In this document: in pieces, positions 55,091-61,792 of the stretch
Position numbering within the stretch: the first letter of the stretch is position 1
Layout of the letters: every line of letters starts with the position of its first letter
DNA from: Paracoccaceae bacterium
Lineage (GTDB): Bacteria > Pseudomonadota > Alphaproteobacteria > Rhodobacterales > Rhodobacteraceae
Length of the DNA: 64,000 bases
Assembly (NCBI GenBank): GCA_016124615.1
Contig: WGNF01000006.1
Location: 62,001 to 126,000, forward strand
Direction of reading: 5' to 3'
Translations under genes and position numbers: made by a program
Notes under the pieces: model-generated
Database searches by the model: none
What the model saw: the letters and a program-made list of their open reading frames with translations, nothing else
What the model was told of the DNA's origin: nothing

Positions 55091-55157
55091 GCAGTCCCGT
55101 TCCAGAACCGCATGCAGGGGCCGCGCGCTCCGGGGGCCAGGGGGAATCGATCCACCG

Positions 55158-56405
55158 ATGAAACGCTACTCCGTCTTTGCCATCGCCCGCGAGGCGCTGC
55201 GCTTCCATCAGGGGTGGGAGCGTGCCTGGCGCTCGCCCACGCCGAAAGCCGCCTATGACGTGGTGATCGTCGGCGCCGGGGGGCATGGCCTTGCCACCGC
55301 CTACTACCTTGGCAAGAACTTCGGCATCACCAACGTGGCGGTGATCGAGAAGGGCTGGCTGGGCGGCGGCAACACCGGGCGCAACACCACCATCATCCGC
55401 TCGAATTACCTGCAAGACCCCTCGGCCGCGATCTACGAAAAGGCCCGCAGCCTGTACGAGACGCTGAGCCAGGATCTGAACTATAACGTCATGTTCAGCC
55501 CCCGCGGCCTTCTGATGCTGGCGCAGACCCACCATGAGGTGCGCGGCTACCTGCGCACCGTGCACGCCAACACCCTGCAAGGGGTGGCGACCGAGTGGAT
55601 CGAGCCTGCCAAGGTCAAGGAACTGGTGCCGATCATCAACATCGACGGCCCGCGCTACCCGGTGCTGGGCGCGCTGTATCAGGCGCGCGGCGGCACCGCG
55701 CGGCACGATGCGGTGGCCTGGGGCTATGCCCGCGCCTGTTCCGCGATGGGGATGGACATCATCCAGCAATGCGAGGTGACGGGCGTCCGGTCAGAGGGCG
55801 GGAACGTCACCGGGGTGGAGACCACCAAGGGCTTCATCGGCTGTAAAAAGATGGGCATCGTCGTCGCCGGACACTCGGGCCAGGTCGCCGAAATGGCCGG
55901 GTTCCGCCTGCCGGTCGAGGCGGTGGCGCTGCAGGCGCTCGTTTCCGAACCCATCAAGCCCTGCATGGACGTGGTGGTGATGGCCAACACCGTGCACGGC
56001 TACATGTCGCAATCCGACAAGGGCGAGATGGTGATCGGCGGCGGCACCGACGGGTTCAACAACTTCACCCAGCGCGGCAGCTTCCAGCATATCGAGGAAA
56101 CCCTGCGGGCGCTGGTCGAGACCTTTCCGATGATTTCGCGGCTCAAGATGCTGCGGCAATGGGGCGGCATCGTCGACATGACCGGCGACCGCTCGCCGAT
56201 CCTGTCGAAAACCCCGCTGGGCAATTGCTTCATCAACTGCGGCTGGGGCACCGGCGGCTTCAAGGCGATCCCCGGCTCCGGCTGGGCGATGGCGGAACTG
56301 ATGGCCAAGGGCGAGCCGGGCCCGCTGGCCGCCGCCTTCGGGATGGAGCGGTTCCGCGAGGGCCGGTTCATTGATGAGAGCGTCGCGGCGGGGGTGGCGC
56401 ACTGA
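55158..56405 (+). CDS. soxB: Sarcosine oxidase subunit beta
   Basis: SoxB is the catalytic flavin subunit of heterotetrameric sarcosine oxidase. The 415-residue protein has the FAD motif VVIVGAGGHGLATAYYLG, the NTGRNTTIIRSNYLQD loop, the His in GGTARHDAVAWG that in this family binds FMN covalently, and QWGGIVDMTGDRSPILSKTP...GWGTGGFKA at the C-terminus. The ATG at 55158 fits the family length. Downstream order should be soxD, but an insertion of about 1.5 kb intervenes. Confidence 0.95.
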   Translation: MKRYSVFAIAREALRFHQGWERAWRSPTPKAAYDVVIVGAGGHGLATAYYLGKNFGITNVAVIEKGWLGGGNTGRNTTIIRSNYLQDPSAAIYEKARSLYETLSQDLNYNVMFSPRGLLMLAQTHHEVRGYLRTVHANTLQGVATEWIEPAKVKELVPIINIDGPRYPVLGALYQARGGTARHDAVAWGYARACSAMGMDIIQQCEVTGVRSEGGNVTGVETTKGFIGCKKMGIVVAGHSGQVAEMAGFRLPVEAVALQALVSEPIKPCMDVVVMANTVHGYMSQSDKGEMVIGGGTDGFNNFTQRGSFQHIEETLRALVETFPMISRLKMLRQWGGIVDMTGDRSPILSKTPLGNCFINCGWGTGGFKAIPGSGWAMAELMAKGEPGPLAAAFGMERFREGRFIDESVAAGVAH

Positions 56406-56410
56406 TGGGG

Positions 56411-56899
56411 TTATTTCCAAAACCTAAACCCACCGAGATAATTCGTCCCGGTGTTGGGTGCGATACCGAGCGGTCCCAGAAGGCCATTGGTAAGCATGTT
56501 GCCTGCCGGGGTCTTGGGATAAGCACCCAAAGATTCCGCTATCTGCGCAAGAGCATTCTGATGCTTGTTGAGGGGGGGGAAGTACGCCCGGATCAAATCG
56601 GTCTCAATATCCCGCCGTTCGGATTCGCTCGTAACGAGCTTTGCCCCGACCGCATTGACACCAAGCGCTTTCGCCTCGTCCCACTTTTCGCCCGGCTGCC
56701 GATGCTCGCCCATCCGTCGCTGAAGTGCATTGGCCTTCCCAACGTAAAGAACTTTGAAGTCAGTAAACTGAGGCCAAGGAACGGCGAGAAACGCGTAGAC
56801 GGCTCCGACCTCATTGAAATCAATACCGGCAGAAAAGACGTCGAACGAGTACTCACGGCCACTAGCACCAGAGAGTTTTGCGGAGAAGAGTTTAGACAT
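56411..56899 (-). CDS. GIY-YIG domain protein inserted in the sox operon
   Basis: A 162-residue protein read antisense to soxB-soxD. Residues 30-115 show the GIY-YIG nuclease fold markers: Y35 in GAVYAFLAV, Y52 in VLYVGKANALQRRM, Arg61/62, E99 in ERRDIETDLIRAY and N111 in PPLNKH. All expected catalytic positions are filled. The C-terminal 50 residues are unassigned. Base composition is less GC-rich than the flanking sox genes. Its end lies 5 bases past the soxB stop, so it abuts it tail-to-tail. It may be a solitary GIY-YIG mobile gene or a defence/repair nuclease. Confidence 0.7.
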   Translation of the reverse strand: MSKLFSAKLSGASGREYSFDVFSAGIDFNEVGAVYAFLAVPWPQFTDFKVLYVGKANALQRRMGEHRQPGEKWDEAKALGVNAVGAKLVTSESERRDIETDLIRAYFPPLNKHQNALAQIAESLGAYPKTPAGNMLTNGLLGPLGIAPNTGTNYLGGFRFWK

Positions 56900-56932
56900 G
56901 GTTTCAGGCTCCAGAAGTTCGCATTTCGTTCC

Positions 56933-56986
56933 ACTCTAGCACAGCTTGCGCAAAAATCAACATTTTGTGCCTATGGTAGTTACCAT
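56933..56986 (-). promoter_or_regulatory. Possible promoter and operator of the GIY-YIG gene
   Basis: On the minus strand TTGATT (56955-56960) and TAGAGT (56933-56938) are 16 bases apart, each a 4/6 match to sigma-70 hexamers, upstream of the gene start at 56899. Just upstream is the inverted repeat ATGGTA-GT-TACCAT (56973-56986, plus-strand reading), a candidate operator. The region is AT-rich for this genome. Confidence 0.35.
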
Positions 56987-57006
56987 CAAGATAGGTGGTG
57001 TGCATC

Positions 57007-57144
57007 ATGCTGACCCTCACCAGCCACTCCCCTCGCGTTAAAGCCAAGGAAACCGAGCTTTCCCCCGCCAACGCAGCGCAATTGACGCGCTTCCACGAGG
57101 GCAGGTTCATCAGCGAAAGCGCCGCCACGAGGGGGACGCACTGA
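57007..57144 (+). pseudogene. soxD::soxB fusion remnant
   Basis: A 45-codon open frame. Its first about 20 codons (MLTLTSHSPRVKAKETELSP) align with the start of soxD (MLTLTCPYCGVKAEETELAP), and its last 18 (RFHEGRFISESAATRGTH, then TGATG) align with the end of soxB (RFREGRFIDESVAAGVAH). The two metal-binding cysteines of SoxD are lost. The best explanation is an old tandem soxB-soxD duplication collapsed by an internal deletion from soxD1 into the end of soxB2. It is probably not functional, though the frame is intact. Confidence 0.8.
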
Positions 57145-57430
57145 TGATAGCCGATGCCCTTCAAGGGGTGACCCTGCCGGGACGGCTTCAGTCGCCGCGC
57201 CGGTCGTGGGCGTCGTCGATGAAGCCCGCCCGCTATGACATTGAGCGTTGCGGTGGAATCCCGGTGGATTTTGGCCGTTCTGGGCGCTCGCGGCTGAAAT
57301 GGGCCGACTTTGGCGCATCGCCGCGCGTCATTCCCGCGGCTTTCCGCCCGCGGATCGCCGGACCGGCGACCAACCCTGTCGGCGGGGCCGGGCTGTACCT
57401 ACCTTTCTGTAATCGAAAGGAGGATACACC

Positions 57431-57784
57431 ATGTATCAGCACTCTTCGGACAAACCCGACACCCATCAACACCCGCGCCCGGCCTATGGTCGGCCGGGTG
57501 GGGGCGGGGTCTGGTGGCTCATCGGCGCTGTCGTCGTGCTGCTGCTTCTGGGCGTCGTCATCTTCGGCACCCCGAGCAGTACCGTGCCCAACGGCGGATC
57601 GGTCGGCACACCGCCACCCGCGGCTCTGGCACCCGCAGCACCTGCGCCGGCCACTGGCGCCAACACCGGCGCAACGGGCAGCAGCCCCAGCACACCGGCA
57701 CCCGCAGCCAATCCGCCGGCGGCACCCGCGCCTGGCACTGGTGCTGGCACCGGGGCAACGGGCTCAGGCGCATCCGGCAACTGA
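57431..57784 (+). CDS. Small membrane protein with Pro/Ala/Gly-rich tail
   Basis: A 117-residue protein. The cytoplasmic-type start (about 28 residues, His/Pro-rich) is followed by one transmembrane helix (WWLIGAVVVLLLLGVVIF, about 28-45), then a low-complexity Ala/Pro/Gly/Thr tail with repeated GATGS and TGAG units. A perfect AAGGAGG ribosome site lies before the ATG. I recognise no family. It lies inside the insertion between soxB and soxD. Confidence 0.6.
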   Translation: MYQHSSDKPDTHQHPRPAYGRPGGGGVWWLIGAVVVLLLLGVVIFGTPSSTVPNGGSVGTPPPAALAPAAPAPATGANTGATGSSPSTPAPAANPPAAPAPGTGAGTGATGSGASGN

Positions 57785-57805
57785 GTTCCACGACCTTCCC
57801 CTCCT

Positions 57806-57831
57806 GGGCGGGCGCCGCATGGCGCCCGCCC
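57806..57831 (+). terminator. Strong hairpin before soxD
   Basis: A perfect 11-bp stem (GGGCGGGCGCC / GGCGCCCGCCC) with a GCAT loop, 22 bases after the small membrane protein stop and 58 before soxD. There is only a short T tract after it. It may terminate the inserted gene, in which case soxDAG need read-through or their own promoter. Confidence 0.5.
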
Positions 57832-57889
57832 TTCGCATGCGCCGCTGCAACCCCGACGATGTTCCGCCCCAGAAGAACGGTCTCTTGTC

Positions 57890-58213
57890 ATGCTGACCCT
57901 TACCTGCCCCTACTGCGGCGTCAAAGCCGAGGAAACCGAGCTTGCCCCCGGCTACGAGGCGCATCTGAAACGCTTCGGCGCGGGATCGTCGGATGACGAT
58001 TTCGAGGGCTACATGTTCGCGCGCAAGAACCCCAAGGGCGTGCATTTCGAACGCTGGCGCCATGCCTATGGCTGCGGCAAGTGGTTCCTTGCGGCGCGCG
58101 ATACGGCAACGCTGGAGGTGTTCGGCACCTATCCGGCGCAATCCAAGGAACCCCCGGCCGACCTGATCGCAAAGATCAAGGCGAAGCGGCCGGGGTGGGA
58201 GGGCTACAAATGA
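57890..58213 (+). CDS. soxD: Sarcosine oxidase subunit delta
   Basis: SoxD is the small zinc-binding subunit of tetrameric sarcosine oxidase. The 107-residue protein has C6-PY-C9 near the start and the HAYGCGKWF segment carrying the remaining His/Cys ligands. ARDTATLEVFGTY is also typical. The stop overlaps the soxA ATG (ATGA). A diverged copy of its N-terminus is the first half of the remnant at 57007. Confidence 0.93.
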   Translation: MLTLTCPYCGVKAEETELAPGYEAHLKRFGAGSSDDDFEGYMFARKNPKGVHFERWRHAYGCGKWFLAARDTATLEVFGTYPAQSKEPPADLIAKIKAKRPGWEGYK

Positions 58214-61200
58214 GCACGCGTCTGGCCCAGGGTGGCCGCCTGATCGACCGCGCCAAATCGGTTGAATTCTCTTTCAACGGCAACCGCTTGCGCGGCTTCG
58301 CCGGGGATACGCTGGCGGCGGGGCTCTTGGCCAACGACCAGATGCTGGTCGGCCGCAGCTTCAAGTACCACCGCCCGCGCGGCGTGGTCGCCTCTGGCGC
58401 CGAAGAGCCGAACGCGCTGGTCAACCTTGGTCAGGGTGGCCGGTTCGAGCCGAACCAGCGCACCACCACGACCGAGCTGTTTGACGGGCTTTATGCGACC
58501 TCGCAGAACCACTGGCCCAGCCTTGAGTTCGATGTCGGCGTGCTGAACAACTACGCCGCCCGGATGCTGCCCGGCGGCTTCTACTACAAGACCTTCATGT
58601 ACCCGCGCGCGGCGTGGAAACACCTGTTCGAGCCGATCGTGCGGCAGTCGGCGGGGCTTGGCAAAGTGCCGCAAGATCCCGACGCAGACCGTTATGAATA
58701 CACCTATTTCTTCACCGACGTGCTGGTGGTCGGCGGCGGCATCGCCGGGCTTCAGGCCGCCGTTGCCGCGGCAGGTGCCGGGGCCCGCGTGATGCTGGTC
58801 GAGCAGACCGCCCACTGGGGCGGTCGCGCCCCGGTCGATGGCATCACGGTCGATGGCAAGCTTGCCGAAGACTGGATCAACGACACCGTCGAAACTCTTG
58901 GCGCGATGGCAAATGTCACGCTGCGGCTGCGCTGCATGGCGGCCGGGGTCTATGACCACGGCTATGTGCTGGCGGATGAGAAGCTGGCCGACCACACCCC
59001 CGGCGACGGGCGGCCCCGGCACCGGCTGTGGCGCATCCGCGCCCGGCGTATCGTGACGGCGACCGGCGCGATCGAACGCCCGCTGTCCTTCGCGGGCAAC
59101 GACATTCCCGGCGTGATGCTGGCCGGGGCGGTGCGCGACTACGTGGTGAACTTCGCTGTCTCGCCCGGCGATCGCACCGTGGTGGTGACCAACAACGACG
59201 ACGCCTACCGCACCGCGCTGGCGCTGAAAGCAGCGGGGCTGGCGGTGCCGGTCATCATCGACGCCCGCCCAGAGGCGAGTGGCGCGTTGCCGCAACAGGC
59301 GCGCGCGGCGGGGATCCGGGTGGAAACCGGCAAGGCCATCGCCAAGGTCAAGGGCGGCAAGCGCGTCACCGGCGTGGCGCTGTGCCTGCAGGCGGGCGAG
59401 GGCGCCGTGATCGAAGAGATCGCCTGCGACGCGGTCGCCATGTCGGGCGGCTGGTCGCCGGTGGTTCACCTCTGGAGCCATTGCGGCGGCAAGCTGATCT
59501 GGGACGAGGCGAACGCCTGCTTCCGCCCCGACGCCACCCGCCCGCCGACCGGCGATGACGGCGCGGGCTTTGTGATCGCGGCGGGGGCGGCCAATGGCGC
59601 CGGTCTTGCCGGGGGCGCGCTGGCCGATGCCGATGCGGCGGGCCGCACCGCCGCCTCGCAAGCCGGGGCAACCGGGGCTTCGGCGCCGTGCCCGGTGGCC
59701 GAAGCCGCCGCCGAGGCGCCGATGGCGCCGGTCTGGATGATGCCGCAGGGCGCCGGGCCGGAATTGCGGATGAAGATGTGGCTGGACTACCAGAACGACG
59801 TGAAGGTGTCCGACGTACAACTGGCCGCGCGCGAGGGCTATGAAAGCGTCGAGCATACCAAGCGCTATACCACGCTGGGGATGGCGACGGATCAAGGCAA
59901 GCTGAGCAACATCAACGGGCTGGCGGTGCTTGCGAATGCGCTGAACGCGCCCATTCCGGCGGTCGGCACCACCACCTTCCGCCCGCCCTATACGCCGGTG
60001 CCGCTGGGCGCGCTGGCGGGCGAGGCGCGCGGCGAGATCTTCCAGCCGCTGCGTCGCACGCCGCTGCACGAGTGGCACGAGGCCAACGGGGTGGAGTGGG
60101 AGCCGGTCGGCCTCTGGCGCCGCCCCTATGCGTTCAAGCGGCCGGGCGAGACGACCGAGCAAGCCGTGCACCGCGAAGTGCTGAACACGCGCGCGAATGT
60201 AGGGCTGCTGGATGCTTCGACGCTGGGCAAACTGGTGGTGAAGGGGGCCGACGCGGGCCGCTTCCTCGACATGCTCTACACTGGCGTGATGTCAACGTTG
60301 CCGGTGGGCAAGTGCCGCTATGGCCTGATGTGCAACGAAAACGGCTTCCTCAGCGACGACGGCGTGGTGGCGCGCATCAACGAGGACACCTGGCTTTGCC
60401 ACACCACGAGCGGAGGCGCCGATCGCATCCACGCCTGGATGGAGGACTGGCTGCAATGCGAGTGGTGGGACTGGCAGGTCTACACCGCCAACCTGACCGA
60501 GCAATTTGCGCAGATTGCCGTGGTCGGCCCGAACGCCCGCAAGGTGCTGGAAAAGCTGGGCGGGATGGACGTGTCGAAAGAAACGCTGCCGTTCATGCAA
60601 TGGGCCGATGGCACCTTGGGCGGGTTCCGCGCGCGGGTCTACCGGATCAGCTTTTCCGGCGAACTCAGCTACGAAATCGCGGTTCCGGCCTCTGAAGGCC
60701 GGGCGTTCTGGGATGCGGTGGTGAAGGCCGGGGCGGAATTCGGCGCGATGCCCTATGGCACCGAGGCGCTGCACATCATGCGGGCCGAAAAGGGCTTCAT
60801 CATGATCGGCGATGAAACCGACGGCACGGTGATCCCGCAAGACCTTGGGCTGAGCTGGGCGATTTCCAAGAAGAAAGCGGATTTCCTCGGCAAGCGTGGG
60901 CAGGAGCGGGTGCACATGACCGACCCCGAGCGCTGGAAGCTGGTCGGCCTTGAAACGCTTGACGGCTCGGTGATCCCCGATGGGGCCATCGCCGTAGCGC
61001 CGGGGGTCAACGCGAACGGCCAGCGCAACACCGAAGGGCGTGTGACATCAACCTATTATTCGCCGACGCTCAAGAAGGGTATCGCGATGGGGCTGGTGCG
61101 GCGCGGGCCGGATCGGATGGGGCAAACGGTGGAATTCCCGAAGATCGGTGGCGGTTCCGTCACCGCGAAGATCGTCGATCAGGTGTTCTTCGACAAGGAC

Positions 61201-61221
61201 GGAGAGAAGCAGAATGTCTGA
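58210..61221 (+). CDS. soxA: Sarcosine oxidase subunit alpha
   Basis: SoxA carries the NAD+ site, binds tetrahydrofolate and receives the one-carbon unit. The 1003-residue protein has an N-terminal ferredoxin-like SoxA domain (EFSFNGNRLRGFAGDTLAAGLLAND), a central Rossmann domain (VLVVGGGIAGLQAAVAAAGAG, about 176-196, and ATGAIERPL), and a C-terminal GcvT-like folate domain (about 615-1000, with SGELSYEIAVP and MRAEKGFIMIGDETDG). It overlaps soxG by 8 bases. Length matches the family. Confidence 0.96.
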   Translation: MSTRLAQGGRLIDRAKSVEFSFNGNRLRGFAGDTLAAGLLANDQMLVGRSFKYHRPRGVVASGAEEPNALVNLGQGGRFEPNQRTTTTELFDGLYATSQNHWPSLEFDVGVLNNYAARMLPGGFYYKTFMYPRAAWKHLFEPIVRQSAGLGKVPQDPDADRYEYTYFFTDVLVVGGGIAGLQAAVAAAGAGARVMLVEQTAHWGGRAPVDGITVDGKLAEDWINDTVETLGAMANVTLRLRCMAAGVYDHGYVLADEKLADHTPGDGRPRHRLWRIRARRIVTATGAIERPLSFAGNDIPGVMLAGAVRDYVVNFAVSPGDRTVVVTNNDDAYRTALALKAAGLAVPVIIDARPEASGALPQQARAAGIRVETGKAIAKVKGGKRVTGVALCLQAGEGAVIEEIACDAVAMSGGWSPVVHLWSHCGGKLIWDEANACFRPDATRPPTGDDGAGFVIAAGAANGAGLAGGALADADAAGRTAASQAGATGASAPCPVAEAAAEAPMAPVWMMPQGAGPELRMKMWLDYQNDVKVSDVQLAAREGYESVEHTKRYTTLGMATDQGKLSNINGLAVLANALNAPIPAVGTTTFRPPYTPVPLGALAGEARGEIFQPLRRTPLHEWHEANGVEWEPVGLWRRPYAFKRPGETTEQAVHREVLNTRANVGLLDASTLGKLVVKGADAGRFLDMLYTGVMSTLPVGKCRYGLMCNENGFLSDDGVVARINEDTWLCHTTSGGADRIHAWMEDWLQCEWWDWQVYTANLTEQFAQIAVVGPNARKVLEKLGGMDVSKETLPFMQWADGTLGGFRARVYRISFSGELSYEIAVPASEGRAFWDAVVKAGAEFGAMPYGTEALHIMRAEKGFIMIGDETDGTVIPQDLGLSWAISKKKADFLGKRGQERVHMTDPERWKLVGLETLDGSVIPDGAIAVAPGVNANGQRNTEGRVTSTYYSPTLKKGIAMGLVRRGPDRMGQTVEFPKIGGGSVTAKIVDQVFFDKDGEKQNV

Positions 61222-61792
61222 CATCGTCAGCGCCCTTGGCGGCGCCCGGTCCGAGGGCTTCGCGACCGTGGAAGAGATCGGCCCCGTCGGCATGATCACG
61301 CTGCGGGGGGCGCAGGACTCGGCCGCCCTGCAAGCGGCGGTAAAGGCGGCGGTGGGCGTCGGCCTTCCCGCAGCCCGGCGGATCGAACTGGACGCGGATC
61401 GCGGCGCGGGCTGGATGTCGCCCGACGAGTTGCTCTTGCTGCTGCCCTACGCGGCCGTTTCCGAAACGCTGGCCGCCCTGACGCAGGCGCTGTCGGGCGA
61501 ACATGCGCTGGCCGTCGATGTGTCGGACGCCCGCGCGGTGTTCCGCATCCGGGGGCCGCAGGCGCGCGAGGTGCTGATGAAGCTGTGCCCGGTGGACCTG
61601 TCGCCCGCCGCCTTCGCCCCCGGCGAGTTGCGCCGCACCCGCGCCGCACAGGTGGCCGCCGCCTTCTGGATCAGCGGGCCGGACGAGTTCACGCTGGTCT
61701 CGTTCCGCTCGGTCGGGCGGTATGTGTTTGACCTGCTTGCCAATGCAGCGGCGTCGGGCAGCGCGGTGGGAGTATACTCCGCGCCGACCTGA
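61214..61792 (+). CDS. soxG: Sarcosine oxidase subunit gamma
   Basis: A 192-residue protein of the SoxG type, a GcvT-like fold that stabilises the alpha-beta complex. Visible markers are AGWMSPDELLLLLP, VDVSDARAVFRIRGPQAREVLMKLCPVDLSP and WISGPDEFTLVSFRSVGRYVFDLL. The ATG overlaps the soxA stop. A small open frame begins at its TGATG end. Confidence 0.93.
   Translation: MSDIVSALGGARSEGFATVEEIGPVGMITLRGAQDSAALQAAVKAAVGVGLPAARRIELDADRGAGWMSPDELLLLLPYAAVSETLAALTQALSGEHALAVDVSDARAVFRIRGPQAREVLMKLCPVDLSPAAFAPGELRRTRAAQVAAAFWISGPDEFTLVSFRSVGRYVFDLLANAAASGSAVGVYSAPT

What the first reader, a model, noticed from the sequence alone, without database searches (positions are those of the whole stretch)
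56406..57889. A GIY-YIG gene and a soxD::soxB scar split the sarcosine oxidase operon
soxB and soxD are normally adjacent. Here 1.5 kb intervenes: an antisense GIY-YIG protein with all key residues (Y35, Y52, Arg61/62, E99, N111), then a 45-codon frame made of the start of soxD joined to the end of soxB, then a small membrane protein. The order soxB - soxD'::'soxB - soxD is exactly what a tandem soxB-soxD duplication followed by an internal deletion would leave. Tandem duplication and a GIY-YIG nuclease at the same site suggest that breakage at the soxB end drove both events. The nuclease may be a solitary mobile gene that targets the soxB 3' end, with the duplication as a repair product. Both links are inference.
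Basis: partly seen in the sequence, partly recalled or inferred. Interest (0 to 1): 0.72.

Follow-up and report, generated by a model that had tools for sequence, protein, structure and literature searches.

The report
Merged cargo insertions inside sarcosine-oxidase operon
The gap between two sarcosine-oxidase genes in this bacterium is a spot where related bacteria carry different small extra genes, and a 140-base hybrid scar there looks like the seam where two such versions were fused; the nuclease gene beside it looks like a passenger, not the cause.

Summary
Between soxB (ends 56405) and soxD (starts 57890) lie an antisense GIY-YIG gene, a soxD'::'soxB hybrid (57007-57146; 77% to soxD over 97 nt and to the soxB end over 60 nt, overlapping by 15 nt) and a small membrane-protein gene. 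Six of six congeners have only 76-94 nt there. The scar's differences show no codon bias.

This junction is an accessory-gene hotspot: 31 of 77 junctions exceed 150 nt, against 0 of 77 for soxD-soxA and 0 of 73 for soxA-soxG. Seven other genomes carry soxB-end and/or soxD-start remnants in the order soxB-X1-remnant-X2-soxD, none with this nuclease at the junction; X1 and X2 show no similarity in 8 of 8. Fusion of two junction versions, one end by homology and one at short homology, fits better than tandem duplication plus deletion. Solitary GIY-YIG relatives lie elsewhere in 7 of 9 genomes: a passenger. A like process is proposed for Vibrio cholerae T6SS immunity arrays; the metabolic-operon setting is what differs. 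Against: the window's soxD' is closest to its own soxD (by 3 sites), so a same-lineage event is possible.

The parts
55158..56405 (+). soxB, sarcosine oxidase beta subunit, 415 aa, intact
   Evidence: TIGR01373 E 1.2e-196; DAO domain
56411..56899 (-). X1: solitary GIY-YIG-domain gene, 162 aa, antisense to the operon; region G+C 0.53 against 0.67 for the window
   Evidence: AlphaFold model of modest confidence, UvrC GIY-YIG domains are the best Foldseek matches but with E >= 0.027
57007..57101 (+). soxD' remnant: start of soxD, 77% identical to 57890-57984
57087..57101 (+). join between the two remnants; soxD and soxB share short homology here (11 of 14 positions, counted by eye), and the join keeps the soxB frame
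   Evidence: overlap of the two alignments; frame
57087..57146 (+). 'soxB remnant: end of soxB including TGATG, 77% identical to 56348-56407
57147..57430 (+). spacer after the scar, no match in the other junctions held at that time
57431..57784 (+). X2: small membrane-protein gene, 117 aa, one hydrophobic stretch and an Ala/Pro/Gly-rich tail (by reading)
   Evidence: 99 nt inside it match the junction of another genus, L200 (73%, E 9e-10)
57890..58213 (+). soxD, sarcosine oxidase delta subunit, 107 aa, intact
   Evidence: PF04267 E 5.7e-26
58210..61221 (+). soxA, overlaps soxD by 4 nt; control junction
   Evidence: named from position and recall, not from a profile search
61214..61792 (+). soxG, overlaps soxA by 8 nt; control junction
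   Evidence: named from position and recall, not from a profile search

Best explanation
The soxB-soxD junction of Rhodobacteraceae is an accessory-gene locus: different lineages carry different 'junction alleles' (soxB-X-soxD) of one or two small genes between conserved flanks. The window holds two such alleles in tandem. Incoming DNA carrying soxB-GIY-soxD' (or 'soxB-mem-soxD) paired with the resident operon by homology at one end and was joined at the other end by illegitimate recombination at short homology between the start of soxD and the end of soxB (57087-57101). This left soxB-GIY-soxD'::'soxB-mem-soxD, keeping both cargo genes and an intact operon. The soxD'::'soxB piece is a seam that now decays without codon bias. 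The GIY-YIG gene is cargo. Shown: anatomy, hotspot, recurrence, dissimilar X1 and X2, decay pattern. Inferred: the intermolecular event, its direction, and the DNA vehicle (transformation or gene transfer agent).
For: Hotspot specific to this junction: gap >150 nt in 31 of 77 loci, against 0 of 77 (soxD-soxA) and 0 of 73 (soxA-soxG). Varied cargo there: two small membrane families (39 and 16 frames), TfoX_N-like (11), a TLQWG-like membrane family (8), FkbM-like (6). Same order soxB-X1-remnant-X2-soxD in 8 genomes: soxD'::'soxB fusions in window, L142, L170; soxB end only in L069 (=L145) and L143; soxD start only in L222, L303, L304. X1 and X2 show no nucleotide similarity beyond shuffles in 8 of 8; genes lie on both sides in 6 of 8 (L170 has only spacer as X2, L222 only 85 nt of spacer as X1). 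X alleles occur separately elsewhere: relatives of the second cargo of L143 lie in junctions L179 and L211 (in L179 starting at the soxB TGATG); a GIY relative lies in junction L144. In L142 the soxD' is foreign: 75/84 to other lineages against 65/84 to its own soxD, own rank 137 of 206. Break points differ between cases: the soxB part starts at different bases and the soxD part ends after about 71 to 131 nt. Scar decay in the window: differences by codon position 7,6,6 and 6,5,5, while for 5 of 6 congeners' soxD and 6 of 6 soxB ends most differences fall in the third position.
Against: In window, L170 and L304 the soxD' is closest to the genome's own soxD (66/85 vs 63/85; 114/131 vs 96; 71/71 vs 69), so the donor must be of the same lineage or the event was internal; in L222 and L303 own soxD ranks 2 and 4. 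No genome with the GIY allele alone was found in the window's genus (6 other genomes). The congeners have neither X1 nor X2, so two acquisitions, or one of a ready-made pair, are needed. Sliding comparison shows no tract bordering the insert: non-congeners score above congeners only at 55782-55989 in soxB and 58890-59189 in soxA. Short tblastx hits of 20-22 aa between X1 and X2 in window (E 0.001) and L303 (E 0.01), and the X1/X2 score of L142 (28) is close to its shuffle maximum (29). Three of the eight keep no recognisable soxB end and two no soxD start. The joins of all three soxD'::'soxB fusions are in frame (read), which 1 in 27 such sets would show by chance: the seam may once have been translated.
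Confidence: 0.6

Rival explanations
1. In-place tandem duplication with break points in the soxB end and soxD start (one step, no later deletion needed), followed by replacement or loss of cargo in each copy.
For: soxD' closest to own soxD in window, L170, L304; short homology at the join; junction L144 holds GIY plus a small membrane gene together, which two copies could have sorted by loss of one each.
Against: X1 and X2 show no similarity beyond shuffles in 8 of 8, although flank copies are still 97% (L069, 64/66) and 100% (L304, 71/71) identical; L142 soxD' is foreign to its own soxD.
Confidence: 0.25
2. One reading: the GIY-YIG gene is a solitary mobile gene that cuts the soxB 3' end, and the duplication is a repair product.
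For: GIY-YIG residues present in the window protein; a 36% relative sits at the same junction in G118.
Against: Seven other genomes have such remnants without a relative of this protein at the junction; the G118 copy has no remnant beside it and lacks Arg and Glu at the aligned positions; 7 of 9 solitary relatives are elsewhere; no Rfam match, so no known intron.
Confidence: 0.04
3. Site-specific cassette insertion with the soxB end as attachment site.
For: L069 has a clean repeat (64/66) of the soxB end around one gene; TGATG ends soxB in 145 of 206 junctions.
Against: The repeat begins at different bases in window, L069, L142, L143, L170; three cases repeat the soxD start instead; no recombinase recognised among the window's gap genes and no inverted repeats.
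Confidence: 0.05
4. Assembly artefact.
For: Some cases are metagenome bins (L069).
Against: Remnants are diverged (77%) from the intact copies in the window and recur in 8 genomes, among them G314, G372, G182 and G309 with 99-100% completeness and 20-30 contigs.
Confidence: 0.02

Closest known systems
Vibrio cholerae T6SS effector-immunity arrays (Kirchberger et al. 2017, PMC5361080; passages read)
   Same: Proposed process: an incoming module anchors by homology at one end, is joined illegitimately at the other, shifts resident genes downstream and can leave remnants (the 3' end of an effector); array members are of different origin rather than duplicates.
   Different: There the cargo is effector and immunity genes of a secretion cluster. 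Here it is unrelated small genes inside a metabolic operon, and remnants come from both flanking genes.
Homology-facilitated illegitimate recombination (PMC3240628, start of abstract in the listing; also described in PMC2884548, passages)
   Same: One homologous and one illegitimate end, used for integration of linear or foreign DNA.
   Different: Described there from experiments; here it is inferred from old natural seams.
Microdiversity / dimorphic loci (PMC2884548, passages)
   Same: Short variable segments between conserved flanks, attributed in part to illegitimate recombination assisted by homology.
   Different: The paper is on three other species; no seams made of both flanking genes appear in the passages read.
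GIY-YIG domain proteins (UvrC N-terminal domain as nearest solved relative)
   Same: Domain profile, model topology, motif residues.
   Different: Solitary 162-aa protein, no second domain recognised by Pfam, no intron found.

Membership tests
GIY-YIG domain superfamily | Profile match above curated cut-off | tested here: met
   PF20815 24.2 bits vs 22.4, over 34 residues only; PF01541 21.2 vs 22.6, just below
GIY-YIG domain superfamily | Catalytic residues (Tyr, Tyr, Arg, Glu, Asn; recalled motif) | tested here: met
   All in the window protein; Arg and Glu not at the aligned positions in L108 (G118) or L111
GIY-YIG domain superfamily | Fold | tested here: inconclusive
   Model mean pLDDT 64.6; UvrC GIY-YIG domains are the best six matches, but E 0.027-0.24 and TM 0.32-0.34 by query length
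GIY-YIG homing endonuclease | Resident of an intron/intein or of one target site | tested here: not met
   No Rfam match in 55100-58300; 7 of 9 solitary relatives have no soxB or soxD within the about 1.5 kb held on either side
GIY-YIG homing endonuclease | Cuts its empty site | not testable with these tools
   Needs an in vitro assay
Homology-facilitated illegitimate recombination product | Foreign or alternative segment between conserved flanks | tested here: met
   Different X in different lineages; congeners have 76-94 nt
Homology-facilitated illegitimate recombination product | Illegitimate end at short or no homology | tested here: met
   15-nt overlap of the soxD and soxB alignments at the window join; other joins at different bases
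Homology-facilitated illegitimate recombination product | Homologous end: imported tract in the anchor gene | tested here: inconclusive
   No tract bordering the insert in the window; foreign soxD' in L142 only
Tandem duplication then internal deletion | Same content on both sides of the scar | tested here: not met
   No similarity beyond shuffles in 8 of 8; later replacement of one copy is not excluded
Transposon, IS or integron cassette | Recombinase, terminal inverted repeats or fixed site | tested here: not met
   No recombinase among the window's gap genes scanned, no inverted repeats, break points vary. attC sites were not searched

The most novel reading that the evidence does not exclude
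The soxB-soxD junction of Rhodobacteraceae is a recombinase-free cassette locus inside a metabolic operon: single genes are swapped between species by recombination in the conserved sox flanks, a number of them start on the soxB TGATG and may be translated by coupling, and arrays grow when two alleles fuse, each fusion leaving a soxD'::'soxB seam, at first in frame so that translation runs on to the next gene, that dates and orients the event. Gene transfer agents or transformation would supply the DNA.
Probability: 0.35. Interest if true: 0.65.

Novelty: new variant of a known kind. Interest (0 to 1): 0.5.

Why it matters
Illegitimate capture of single genes is thought to shape bacterial genomes (PMC2884548, passages) but, in my view, seldom leaves so readable a trace. 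Here the seams are made of both conserved flanking genes, so order and break points, and once the foreign origin, can be read, and one locus gives several cases in one family. It also shows that a tidy operon can carry changing passenger genes, which matters for annotating genes by their neighbourhood. No paper on accessory genes at this junction showed up in the listings (sarcosine oxidase, Rhodobacteraceae, operon: 3 papers; soxBDAG, sarcosine oxidase: 13 papers, 10 listed), nor on such loci in general with the terms; these papers were not read, and most subscription papers are not in that library.

Tried and rejected
Scar as an att site: suggested by L069 and dropped because repeats start at different bases. 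GIY-YIG as driver: dropped (see verdict). Phage or plasmid origin: tblastn of the GIY protein and blastn of the whole gap found nothing in phages or plasmids, and one viral-contig scan with A1 found no relative among 25 pattern stretches. GIY in genome contigs: 48 pattern stretches, none a relative. Defence gene: only weak padloc hits, best E 0.0066. 45-codon frame as a present gene: rejected on its decay pattern; the frames of L142 and L170, in frame at the join, are shifted near the soxB end (read). Genus searches for close relatives of two cases: G314 had no congener held; G228 had four, and its soxD'-plus-spacer query mostly hit a dispersed repeat.

Dropped before counting: weak repeat flags with local scores 23-29 (L034, L037, L105; L037, L152, L219, L261) were taken as chance, against 50 or more for accepted soxB ends and 76 or more for accepted soxD starts. 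L085, L086, L088, L201 lacked one gene; no soxB was found in L310 and L314. L317 and L322 have a wrongly called soxB end but stay in the 206. L145 is the same junction as L069. G371 has two soxD hits on different contigs and is not a remnant case. Loci were chosen by similarity to the window's soxD or the L069 soxB end, and L303/L304 by a targeted search, so frequencies are not unbiased. In one search only two candidates per genome were scored and the list of places was cut; the window's own decayed remnant was not found, so counts of remnants are lower bounds.

Full report
WHAT IS THERE. soxB (55158-56405) and soxD (57890-58213) are intact and separated by 1484 nt. In order: an antisense GIY-YIG gene (56411-56899), a soxD'::'soxB hybrid (57007-57146), a 284-nt spacer, and a small membrane-protein gene (57431-57784). 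The hybrid is real: 97 nt at 77% to the start of soxD and 60 nt at 77% to the end of soxB, the two alignments overlapping at 57087-57101; local scores 80 and 50 against shuffle maxima of 27 and 28. The GIY region has G+C 0.53 against 0.67 for the window. No inverted repeats of 14 nt or more in 56250-58100, no Rfam match in 55100-58300.

CLOSE RELATIVES. All 7 genomes held of the genus have soxD. The six other than the window's have soxB-soxD gaps of 76, 76, 94, 88, 76 and 91 nt, no GIY match, and, for the stretch 56900-57860, only matches to soxD itself plus two short ones of 30-33 nt. The insert is therefore peculiar to the window's lineage among those held.

THE SCAR DECAYS. Against the window's own soxD the remnant has differences at codon positions 7, 6, 6 (29 codons, 3 synonymous and 12 non-synonymous changes); against its own soxB end 6, 5, 5 (20 codons, 5 and 8). 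In the same codons, five of the six congeners' soxD and six of six soxB ends show mostly third-position differences, such as 1, 1, 7 and 0, 0, 6; the exception is soxD of L009 with 4, 5, 5. So the remnant is not under the selection that keeps soxD or soxB. One fact cuts the other way: the joins of all three soxD'::'soxB fusions known here (window, L142, L170) keep the soxB frame (read), a 1 in 27 chance, and two of the three are shifted only near the end. A seam translated at first, so that ribosomes reach the TGATG before the next gene, would explain this; it is a guess.

A HOTSPOT, NOT A ONE-OFF. I collected junctions from a genome-contig scan (the best 80 of 485 soxD relatives) and from genome handles (120 loci; 20 more). 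After merging identical ones there are 206 distinct junctions with both genes; 74 have gaps of at most 150 nt and 126 of at least 250 nt. In the loci, soxB-soxD exceeds 150 nt in 31 of 77, soxD-soxA in 0 of 77 (-4 to 0 nt) and soxA-soxG in 0 of 73 (at most 46 nt). The cargo is varied: two families of small membrane proteins (39 and 16 frames), TfoX_N-like proteins (11; one member checked, PF04993 E 5.5e-14), a membrane family with a TLQWG-like motif (8), FkbM-like methyltransferases (6; a further one, from L303, PF05050 E 3.6e-15) and many singletons (Pfam). Frames were picked by length and codon-position G+C, so some are spurious.

THE SAME SEAM ELSEWHERE. Eight genomes have remnants of the flanking genes inside the gap, each in the order soxB-X1-remnant-X2-soxD. 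soxD'::'soxB hybrids: window; L142 (G314), which has one membrane gene before and another after the hybrid; L170 (G228), which has a 136-aa gene before it (X1 G+C 0.50) and a plain spacer after. soxB end only: L069 (Tabrizicola sp. RU_1_2), a 228-aa gene starting on the soxB TGATG, then 64 of 66 bases of the soxB end again, then a small membrane frame; L143 (G372), a membrane gene, a soxB end, then a 91-aa gene starting on its TGATG. soxD start only: L222 (G092), where X1 is only 85 nt of spacer, L303 (G309) and L304 (G182); in L304 the first 71 bases of soxD are repeated without a mismatch, followed by a 137-aa gene. The last two came from a search with the first 34 residues of soxD: 345 of 394 family genomes match, 6 have two matches, and one of these six (G371) has them on separate contigs. 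Among the eight only the window has a relative of this GIY-YIG protein at the junction.

WHY MERGER OF TWO ALLELES. In all eight, X1 and X2 show no nucleotide similarity beyond 50 shuffles, though L142 comes close (28 against a maximum of 29), and there are short tblastx hits (20-22 aa, E 0.001 and 0.01) in window and L303. Where flank copies are still 97-100% identical (L069, L304), a duplicated X should still be recognisable. X segments also occur alone at the junction in other lineages: relatives of the 91-aa gene of L143 lie in the junctions L179 and L211, the GIY relative in L144, and 99 nt of the window's membrane gene match L200. In L142 the soxD' is closer to other lineages (75/84) than to its own soxD (65/84, rank 137 of 206); at sites where its own soxD differs from six chosen lineages (among the best matches), the remnant agrees with the other lineage at 10-12 and with its own at 1-2. 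What speaks for a same-lineage event is that in window, L170 and L304 the soxD' is closest to the genome's own soxD; in the window by 3 sites of 85. So I read these as mergers with a donor of the same lineage, or possibly internal events; only L142 shows a clear foreign copy.

MECHANISM. One end by homology in soxB (or in soxD-soxA), the other by illegitimate joining between the start of one soxD and the end of the other soxB. The window's join has 11 of 14 matching positions between soxD and soxB (counted by eye). Break points vary, which speaks against a site-specific recombinase. I looked for an imported tract in the window and found none bordering the insert; non-congeners score above congeners only at 55782-55989 and 58890-59189. 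The short length of remnants could reflect loss of longer direct repeats and the need to keep the operon working; this is inference. Rhodobacteraceae gene transfer agents would be a natural vehicle (recalled, not tested).

THE GIY-YIG GENE. It belongs to a small family of solitary GIY-YIG proteins: with profile A1 (built from five members, so these match by construction), 9 of 394 family genomes have a match at E 1.6e-6 or better in a short open frame (85-174 aa); two sit at the sox junction (window, G118) and seven have no soxB or soxD within the about 1.5 kb held on either side. Most weaker matches lie in frames of about 620-720 aa, the size of UvrC (recalled). The G118 protein lacks the Arg and Glu at the aligned positions. 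Searches of phages, plasmids and viral contigs gave nothing. The AlphaFold model is of modest confidence and Foldseek ranks UvrC GIY-YIG domains first, though with E of 0.027 or more. I take the gene for cargo.

KNOWN PARALLELS. Kirchberger et al. (PMC5361080; [quoted passage not shown] Homology-facilitated illegitimate recombination is described in PMC3240628 (start of abstract in the listing) and PMC2884548 (passages). Merodiploids in pneumococcus (PMC3784515; passages) show that transformation can also make true tandem duplications, which is the main rival here.

VERDICT. The cause proposed is not supported. The better reading is a fused pair of junction alleles at a hotspot seen across the family, a new variant of a known process.

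Noticed in passing
L170:1214-1326 and dispersed copies in G228, G423, G425: The G+C-rich spacer before soxD in L170 contains a short repeat with many copies in these three congeneric genomes.
   Followed up: no
junctions L175, L185, L198, L205, L207, L223 and five more: TfoX_N-like proteins of about 110 aa recur in 11 junctions, often just before soxD; one was checked against Pfam.
   Followed up: partly
junctions L059, L067, L074, L094, L100, L236 and L303: FkbM-like methyltransferase genes between soxB and soxD; only the one of L303 was checked against Pfam.
   Followed up: partly
junctions L170, L186, L197, L200, L232, L243 and others: A family of small membrane proteins, several with a TLQWG-like motif near the C-terminus, recurs as cargo.
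   Followed up: no
206 distinct junctions: soxB ends in TGATG in 145 of 206, and several cargo genes start on that ATG, suggesting translational coupling.
   Followed up: partly
window 57087-57101, L142, L170: The joins of all three soxD'::'soxB fusions keep the soxB frame (read); unexplained.
   Followed up: no
window 56405-57013 (+) and 57144-57896 (+): Two long frames start on the TGATG of soxB and of the scar (202 and 250 aa); the first lies opposite the GIY-YIG gene, the second ends just inside the soxD start. Probably shadows.
   Followed up: no
window 57010-57027 and L144: An 18-nt identity, inverted, between the scar start and the gap of L144 (G118), by reading the start of its GIY-YIG gene (E 0.006); probably chance.
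   Followed up: no
G371: soxD-like matches on two different contigs, suggesting two sox operons.
   Followed up: no
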